DNA from: Periplaneta americana
Lineage: Eukaryota; Arthropoda; Insecta; Blattodea; Blattidae
DNA: 64,000 bases
Assembly: GCF_040183065.1 (NCBI RefSeq)
Contig: NC_091124.1
Span: forward strand, 94,196,501-94,260,500
Direction: 5' to 3'
The notes below the pieces were generated by a model. That model saw only the letters and a program-made list of their open reading frames with translations, had not been told where the DNA came from and did not search any database. A program made the translations under genes and the position numbers. Shown here piece after piece: positions 46,161 to 47,062 of the stretch; positions within the stretch are counted from its first letter, which is position 1; the number at the start of each line of letters is the position of its first letter.

Positions 46161-46843
46161 GAAATATGAATTTAACAACCTTCCAAAATAAGACCATATA
46201 TGTATGGTTTACTACCAAATGATACTGACATCTTAATCACCTTGCTGTGATGAACGGGATGAGATGTAGAAACTATGTTATGAGATTTGCTAGTGACGTA
46301 ATATACTCAGGCCATGATGTTTTATTCTAGGATTGAGTGACTGGGCAAGAAATGTATGTTATGCTGTAGAAAGGAAAGAAGTAATTACTTGCCAGTTGTT
46401 TCCCTTACAATTATATAATGAAATGCACTTCACTTTTAATCAGTGGTAGTATTAATTTTCAAAATTGTAAATTTATTAACTATTGCATTGGTTATTAAGA
46501 TGTCATAAATATTTGATAGATGAAACCAACATAAAATGTTTAGTAACTCCATCCAAATGAACGGTAGAGTGAAGCAAAGCGAGAACATCGTAAGAACTTC
46601 ACACATTTTTAATGAATACTTTCGACAAAATTAATTTCTTTGACTCAGTTTTTAGATTTTGAAATCAGTTTGATATAAGGCAGGAAACGTAACGTATTTG
46701 TGAAAACAAGTAAATTTTAATATTCACAAAACATGATAAAATACACATATTTGGTCAATAACACAGTGTTCATGAAGTCGATAAAATACATTAAAGGAAA
46801 TATGTCACAGTTATATGAACACTTTATAAGTTTATTGATAATG

Positions 46844-46889
46844 TTATTCAGATATATTTCGGAGAATGCTTCTCCATCTTCAGTGATAA
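46844..46889 (-). ncRNA. Hammerhead ribozyme-like motif, left arm
   Basis: On the minus strand the order is a stem I strand (TTATCA), the core box CTGAAGA (fits CUGANGA), one extra T, a 6-bp stem II hairpin GGAGAA-GCA-TTCTCC, GAAA, a palindromic TATA as minimal stem III, a TC cleavage-type dinucleotide, and the second stem I strand TGAATAA, which pairs with TTATCA leaving one bulged base. All conserved core boxes are present. The extra T between the first box and stem II is not canonical and may reduce activity. Minimal stem III hammerheads are known from Penelope-like retroelements. Confidence 0.55.
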
Positions 46890-46962
46890 GTTACATCGAC
46901 GAAGTGGTCAGTCTAATTTAAGCCAAGCAAGAACACAGTTCGAACATCTGAACTACTTCGTC

Positions 46963-47015
46963 GATGTAACTTCTGAAGATGGAGAAGCATTCTCCGAACA
47001 TGTCTCAATAACATC
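46963..47015 (+). ncRNA. Hammerhead ribozyme-like motif, right arm, core damaged
   Basis: Plus-strand counterpart of the motif at 46844-46889: CTGAAGA (46973-46979), extra T, the GGAGAA-GCA-TTCTCC hairpin, then GAAC instead of GAAA-C, a palindromic CATG-type stem III and TC. GATGT and ACATC can pair as an outer stem I. The lost A in the second core box should inactivate it. Confidence 0.45.
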
Positions 47016-47062
47016 TTCAATAAACTTATAAAGTATCATATAACTGCGACATATGTATTTTA

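What the first reader, a model, noticed from the sequence alone, without database searches (positions are those of the whole stretch)
46784..47062. Outward-facing hammerhead-like ribozyme cores in a fold-back element
Seen: each arm has CTGAAGA, a GGAGAA/TTCTCC hairpin and then GAA(A), with flanks able to form stem I. The left-arm motif on the minus strand keeps both core boxes. The short stem III is palindromic in both arms but differs in sequence (TATA against CATG), a change that preserves pairing. Known: minimal hammerheads with tiny stem III occur in Penelope-like elements and small retrozyme-like repeats. Inference: this fold-back derives from two such units in inverted orientation, so a transcript from either strand contains one ribozyme and one antisense copy. 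The unpaired T before stem II is a caution.
Basis: partly seen in the sequence, partly recalled or inferred. Interest (0 to 1): 0.75.

Follow-up and report, generated by a model that had tools for sequence, protein, structure and literature searches.

The report
Decayed inverted Penelope-like ribozyme repeat pair
A 280-base hairpin in an insect-like genome is most likely the leftover of a Penelope-type jumping gene that inserted two short end-pieces head to head, each carrying a worn hammerhead self-cutting RNA motif; it is a new example of a known kind, and probably not active.

Summary
The fold-back is real: 46792-46908 and 46952-47062 align at 100 of 111 positions with 3 gaps, and 46784-47062 folds at -144 kcal/mol. 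Both arms contain CTGAAGA-T-GGAGAA-GCA-TTCTCC-GAA, facing outward. The left (minus-strand) copy keeps all core bases, A15.1/U16.1, C17 and a weak stem I. The right copy has lost one A of GAAA and the stem I next to its natural cleavage position. Rfam gives no hammerhead hit, and the core is no better conserved than the rest of the arms. The insertion 46735-47062 is flanked by a 13/14 direct repeat. Only the left unit has a ~45-nt extension, ending in the same 11 bases as the unit itself. Head-to-head inverted pseudo-LTRs, target duplications and an optional 'tail' on one unit are described for Penelope (PMC3846280). The 'unpaired T' completes an ATG with the predicted cut 26 nt in, as reported for an Anolis PLE (PMC11167929). 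The source-genome search did not complete, so no family member was compared. Best reading: decayed solo inverted pLTR pair; known kind, moderate interest.

The parts
46721..46734 (+). left copy of the flanking direct repeat (putative target-site duplication), TATTCACAAAACAT
   Evidence: 13 of 14 match to 47061-47074; score reached by 7 of 20000 random placements, or 2 of 300 with 12 nt slack
46735..46781 (-). one-sided extension ('tail'-like, ~45 nt) beyond the left arm; its outer end GATAAAATACA (46735-46745) repeats the arm end (46780-46790)
   Evidence: compared with the 30-40 bp PLE tail and the 31-bp tail
46782..46908 (-). left arm: pLTR-like unit, sense on the minus strand, 3' end outward
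   Evidence: for 46792-46908; the outermost TAAAATACAT (46782-46791) matched to the right end by eye (ends printed)
46851..46883 (-). left hammerhead-like motif: CTGAAGA (46883-46877), inserted T 46876, stem II 46875-46861, GAA 46860-46858, A15.1 46857, TATA, U16.1 46852, C17 46851
   Evidence: no Rfam hit
46909..46951 (.). 43-nt spacer between the arms
46952..47062 (+). right arm: pLTR-like unit, sense on the plus strand, 3' end outward
46973..47004 (+). right hammerhead-like motif: CTGAAGA, inserted T 46980, stem II 46981-46995, GAA 46996-46998 (fourth A missing), CATG, T, C 47004; no stem I at the natural cleavage position
47061..47074 (+). right copy of the flanking direct repeat, TACTCACAAAACAT

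Best explanation
The feature is an old, decayed insertion (46735-47062) of two 5'-truncated copies of the end unit (pseudo-LTR) of a Penelope-like retroelement, joined head to head so that the 3' ends and the minimal type I hammerhead motifs face outward. Inferred mechanism: the element's enzyme cut both strands of an AT-rich site. Reverse transcription started at two neighbouring sites of the RNA, giving one unit without and one unit with the short tail. The two truncated copies met in the middle, and repair of the staggered cut left a ~14-bp target duplication. (Self-priming on an antisense template, proposed in PMC3846280, would also give a head-to-head pair.) In the parent element the motif would have cut the RNA weakly, probably as a dimer through the palindromic stem III (ACAUGU or AUAUAU). 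Here it is a relic: the right copy is broken, and a transcript of the whole insertion would fold into the long hairpin. Shown: hairpin, motif anatomy, direct repeat, extension. Inferred: PLE origin, mechanism, past ribozyme activity.
For: Hairpin. Left minus-strand copy meets core, A15.1, UH and stem I together; 6 of 600 shuffled windows do (20 of 600 with stem II of only 3 bp). Direct repeat next to the element ends: 7 of 20000 random placements, 2 of 300 with slack; none of the 8 other long inverted repeats tested scores above 5 against 11 here. Extension with a repeated 11-mer at its end: 100 of 59144 window positions have such a copy at 30-60 nt, 77 of these 100 in or beside the 20236-21251 tandem array. 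Literature: inverted pLTRs, often with TSDs, an optional 31-bp tail at the 3' end of one inverted pLTR, head-to-head the most frequent inverted arrangement (PMC3846280, passages). In Anolis Poseidon (PMC11167929, passages): both strands cut and extended, two RT start sites bounding the tail, ORF starting at stem II with C3 and G8 before the start codon, cut site 26 bp after it. In the right arm G8 lies just before an ATG and the predicted cut follows its 26th base (27th on the left). [quoted passage not shown]
Against: No Rfam hammerhead match, even at E up to 10. The right arm lacks a core A and a stem I at the natural position. Forced folding gives no stem I on the left. The core is no better conserved than the arms (P = 0.40). 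The frame from the ATG stops after 9-10 codons in the arms. No GIY-YIG domain among 19 translations scanned with Pfam (18 of the 52 ORFs plus the hairpin frame); RVT_1 matches were seen, which I take for non-LTR elements from recall. No homologous copy could be fetched. The ~14-bp direct repeat is longer than the 8-10 bp TSDs quoted for rotifer Penelope, some of which have none, and the ~45-nt extension is longer than the 30-40 bp quoted. The extension resembles the arm ends weakly (43 of 2000 shuffles as good against the left, 287 of 2000 against the right). In Anolis the ribozyme cut only with protein present and was not needed for insertion in vitro. The fit to published PLE anatomy was made after seeing the sequence.
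Confidence: 0.6

Rival explanations
1. A MITE-like or other fold-back DNA transposon whose arms happen to contain a hammerhead-like string; no ribozyme ancestry.
For: The window holds many long inverted repeats (153 pairs of at least 24 nt within 1.5 kb, 25 of them listed, several AT runs). The arms end with TA...TA (ends printed). The loose motif arises in 126 of 600 shuffled windows. No Rfam hit.
Against: A ~14-bp direct repeat (11 exact, 13 of 14) is long for a TIR transposon (recalled), and it abuts the outer end of the one-sided extension, not the arm end. The motif with A15.1, UH and stem I is rare by chance (6 of 600, or 20 of 600 with the shortest stem II).
Confidence: 0.27
2. A local inverted duplication or hairpin-RNA locus (source of siRNA or a long miRNA-like hairpin) unrelated to a ribozyme.
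For: Very stable long hairpin.
Against: The flanking direct repeat and one-sided extension imply an insertion. The 70-codon frame across the hairpin has no Pfam match at E up to 0.01.
Confidence: 0.08
3. A retrozyme-type non-autonomous circular-RNA repeat (non-LTR retrozyme) rearranged into inverted orientation.
For: Animal type I retrozymes are ~170-400 nt, of low GC, can have a one-pair stem III with palindromic tetraloop, and TSDs, when present, longer than 4 bp (PMC7229834, passages and section 15).
Against: Those occur as tandem repeats, many with loop-loop contacts; here the units are head to head and I saw no such contacts (not modelled).
Confidence: 0.05

Closest known systems
Inverted pseudo-LTRs of Penelope elements (Adineta vaga Pen2a and others, PMC3846280, passages)
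   Same: Short inverted end units, most often head to head, flanked in several cases by a target duplication, with a short extension at the 3' end of one unit only
   Different: There the units mostly flank an ORF, its remnant or captured sequence; here nothing but a 43-nt spacer remains; direct repeat ~14 bp against 8-10 bp; extension ~45 nt against 31 bp; sequence homology not shown
Minimal type I hammerhead of Penelope-like elements (Anolis Poseidon PAc, PMC11167929, passages; Cervera and De la Pena 2014 and Lunse 2017, not held, known here only as citations and recall)
   Same: Hammerhead core with the start codon at stem II and the cut site 26 nt after the start codon; PLE hammerheads are described in reviews as minimal, lacking a proper helix III
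   Different: Right copy has lost a core A and stem I; ATG frame is closed; activity unknown; the Anolis sequence itself was not seen
Newt/axolotl type I hammerhead (PMC7229834, section 15)
   Same: One-pair stem III with palindromic tetraloop; poor as monomer, better as dimer
   Different: Tandem repeats with loop-loop contacts; no inverted pair

Membership tests
Hammerhead ribozyme (type I) | CUGAnGA and GAAA core boxes with A15.1-U16.1 and H17 | tested here: inconclusive
   Left copy meets all with a one-base insertion after A9; right copy lacks one A
Hammerhead ribozyme (type I) | Stem II next to the core | tested here: inconclusive
   6 bp in both arms but separated from CTGAAGA by one T; PMC10085705 allows one or two nt there
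Hammerhead ribozyme (type I) | Stem I closing the core | tested here: inconclusive
   Left: 3 contiguous bp, anchored score P = 0.037. Right: 0 bp at the natural position, 2 bp and P = 0.043 if shifted by 2 nt. Not formed on the left in forced folding
Hammerhead ribozyme (type I) | Recognition by Rfam hammerhead covariance models (a detection test, not a definition) | tested here: not met
   No hit at gathering score nor at E up to 10 in 46700-47150; sensitivity of these models to minimal PLE variants was not checked
Hammerhead ribozyme (type I) | Self-cleavage | not testable with these tools
   needs a bench assay
Penelope-like element (solo inverted pLTR pair) | Inverted end units with target-site duplication | tested here: met
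   that the direct repeat arose by insertion is inferred
Penelope-like element (solo inverted pLTR pair) | Optional short tail at the 3' end of one unit | tested here: inconclusive
   45-nt one-sided extension with repeated 11-nt end; that it continues the parent element is not shown
Penelope-like element (solo inverted pLTR pair) | Telomerase-like RT and GIY-YIG endonuclease ORF in the parent | tested here: inconclusive
   No GIY-YIG match among 19 translations scanned with Pfam, 18 of the 52 ORFs plus the hairpin frame; the genome could not be searched
Penelope-like element (solo inverted pLTR pair) | Sequence homology to known PLE pLTRs | not tested
   no eukaryotic repeat library on hand; the genome search on the source genome unreachable in twelve tries (last)
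MITE / TIR transposon | Terminal inverted repeats with a short fixed TSD next to the repeat ends | tested here: inconclusive
   No direct repeat of note at the hairpin ends (score 2 with 12 nt slack), but a bare TA duplication cannot be excluded

The most novel reading that the evidence does not exclude
A miniature, trans-mobilised ambisense PLE derivative: a fold-back family consisting only of two inverted hammerhead pLTRs, in which a transcript of either strand carries one ribozyme paired against its own antisense copy, so that the hairpin silences and the released arm cuts. The left motif could still cut minus-strand RNA as a dimer.
Probability: 0.08. Interest if true: 0.6.

Novelty: new member of a known kind. 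Interest (0 to 1): 0.35.

Why it matters
If right, it shows that decayed PLE end units might be recognised from raw sequence by four marks (outward hammerhead cores, an ATG inside the core, a one-sided tail, a long target duplication) where the Rfam models show nothing, and that some MITE-like hairpins in insect genomes may be retroelement ends rather than DNA transposons.

Tried and rejected
Canonical hammerhead without inserted base: none in the window. Relaxed scan with at most one mismatch in the core boxes and stem II of at least 5 Watson-Crick pairs: only the two known motifs. Core specially conserved between arms: rejected (P = 0.40). Hairpin as a coding fragment: the 70-codon frame across it has no Pfam match. 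SNORD72 at E 6.8: chance, 18 bits against a gathering score of 43. Direct repeat D2: short two-copy match, not followed. Other copies in the window: BLAST of the arms against the window gave, apart from the arms and their flanks, only weak hits (best E 0.36 for an arm; 0.011 for a piece of the right flank). Pattern searches for relatives: viral-contig searches gave one phage-sized contig (L001, stem II 1 bp); one search gave two contigs with the same stretch (L002, L003); none. Genome contigs one search gave none; one search gave 19 loci, all with prokaryotic titles, several of them the same Prevotella stretch. Of the 20 matches to the pattern (19 plus L001), 1 has stem II of at least 4 bp (L022, 7 bp, stem I 0 bp). 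All were taken as chance; that they are coding was not tested. Literature searches: (sequence words) led nowhere.

Full report
What is there. The window looks like insect DNA; this is my judgement from the ORFs (a tetraspanin ORF, a Maelstrom-domain ORF and several reverse-transcriptase fragments), and no call names the species. At 46782-47062 lies a long inverted repeat. Positions 46792-46908 and 46952-47062 align with 100 identities, 11 mismatches and 3 gap openings; the outermost ten bases on the left match the right end by eye (ends printed). The strand 46784-47062 folds at -144.1 kcal/mol against a shuffled mean of -48.5. Long inverted repeats are not rare here: 153 pairs of at least 24 nt within 1.5 kb, several of the 25 listed being AT runs. 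The hairpin as such is therefore unremarkable.

The hammerhead reading. Both arms hold CTGAAGA, one T, a 6-bp stem with a 3-nt loop, and GAA, pointing outward. They are copies of each other and count once. A search allowing one inserted base finds only these two motifs in the window; 126 of 600 shuffled windows hold at least one with stem II of 4 bp or more, 13 of 600 with 6 bp or more. (A first run with 60 shuffles, at 4 bp or more, gave 8.) Asking also for A15.1, U16.1-H17 and stem I of at least 3 bp leaves the left minus-strand copy alone, against 6 of 600 shuffles with stem II of at least 4 bp and 20 of 600 with at least 3 bp. The left copy reads GAA-A-TATA-T-C followed by a weak stem I. 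By eye this stem can be read as TTATCA with TGA(A)TAA; its anchored score is reached by 3.7% of 5000 flank shuffles. The right copy reads GAA-CATG-T-C, one A short, and pairs 0 bp next to the core at that position; if the cleavage position is moved by 2 nt it gains 2 bp and an anchored score reached by 4.3% of shuffles. Against the reading: as free duplexes the flanks are matched or bettered by 20% (left) and 5% (right) of 2000 shuffles, and folding with the core held open and stem II forced costs 2.3 kcal/mol on the left and 3.4 on the right without making a core-adjacent stem I. Rfam shows no hammerhead at either threshold. The identical 24-base run over the core is expected (P = 0.40), so preferential core conservation is not seen between the two arms.

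The direct repeat TATTCACAAAACAT / TACTCACAAAACAT (46721-46734, 47061-47074) abuts the element ends if the left end is placed at 46735. A score this high was reached by 7 of 20000 random pairs of places, and by 2 of 300 when 12 nt of slack is allowed on each side; eight other long inverted repeats of the window score at most 5 against 11. Placing the left end at the hairpin end instead (46780 or 46782) gives no repeat. The stretch between, 46735-46781, is an extension of the left unit only. Its outer 11 bases, GATAAAATACA, repeat those of the arm end 45 nt inside; 100 of 59144 window positions have such a copy 30-60 nt on, 77 of the 100 in or beside the 20236-21251 tandem array. The extension as a whole aligns only weakly to the arm ends (43 of 2000 shuffles as good against the left, 287 of 2000 against the right).

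Fit to Penelope-like elements. [quoted passage not shown] PMC8969392 (passages) lists inverted pLTRs and short 3' extensions as PLE peculiarities. PMC11167929 (passages) reports that the Anolis enzyme cuts and extends both strands, prefers AT-rich DNA with ATT, and starts reverse transcription at two sites that bound the optional 30-40 bp tail. The ORF there starts at stem II, C3 and G8 of the hammerhead lie before the start codon, and the cut site lies 26 bp after it. The same paper found that this ribozyme cut only with protein present and was not needed for insertion in vitro. In the window the extra T makes CTGAAG-ATG-G, and the predicted cut follows base 26 (right) or 27 (left) of that ATG. 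[quoted passage not shown] Reviews state that PLE hammerheads are minimal, lack a proper helix III and may act as dimers (PMC7761336 and PMC6155905, passages).

Cautions. The ATG frame closes after 10 codons (right) and 9 (left) as it stands, so this is not a working ORF start. No GIY-YIG domain was found among 19 translations scanned with Pfam, that is 18 of the 52 ORFs plus the hairpin frame; the RVT_1 matches I take for non-LTR elements from recall. No relative was found: the collections scanned hold viral contigs and prokaryote genomes, the matches there look like chance, and the source-genome search was unreachable in twelve tries (last). The PLE match is anatomical, not by homology, and was made after seeing the sequence.

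Verdict. Most likely (0.6) a decayed head-to-head pair of PLE end units carrying hammerhead remnants: left copy intact in its core bases, right copy broken. Function today: probably none as a ribozyme, since a full transcript pairs each motif with its antisense copy in a very stable hairpin. Main rival (0.27): a MITE-like fold-back with a chance motif.

Noticed in passing
12147-13595 (-): Uninterrupted 482-aa frame with a Maelstrom domain (piRNA pathway; E 1e-40).
   Followed up: partly
43484-45283 (+): 599-aa frame with a tetraspanin domain (E 2e-24) and low-complexity stretches on both sides of it, about 1.5 kb upstream of the insertion.
   Followed up: partly
36253-36825, 37272-38036, 47602-48634, 27127-27891, 41228-41445, 62300-62824: Other long inverted repeats (listed arms 40-253 nt, 74-95% complementary) without long flanking direct repeats; likely other fold-back or inverted elements.
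   Followed up: partly
20236-21251: Tandem array of a ~76-bp unit, rows 90-100% alike, read as long ORFs by mechanical ORF calling.
   Followed up: no
33228-34904 (-): Fragments of a reverse transcriptase, probably non-LTR (RVT_1 matches at 34092-34445 and 33231-34088); by eye a similar stretch at 27769-28173 (-), which has no Pfam match.
   Followed up: partly
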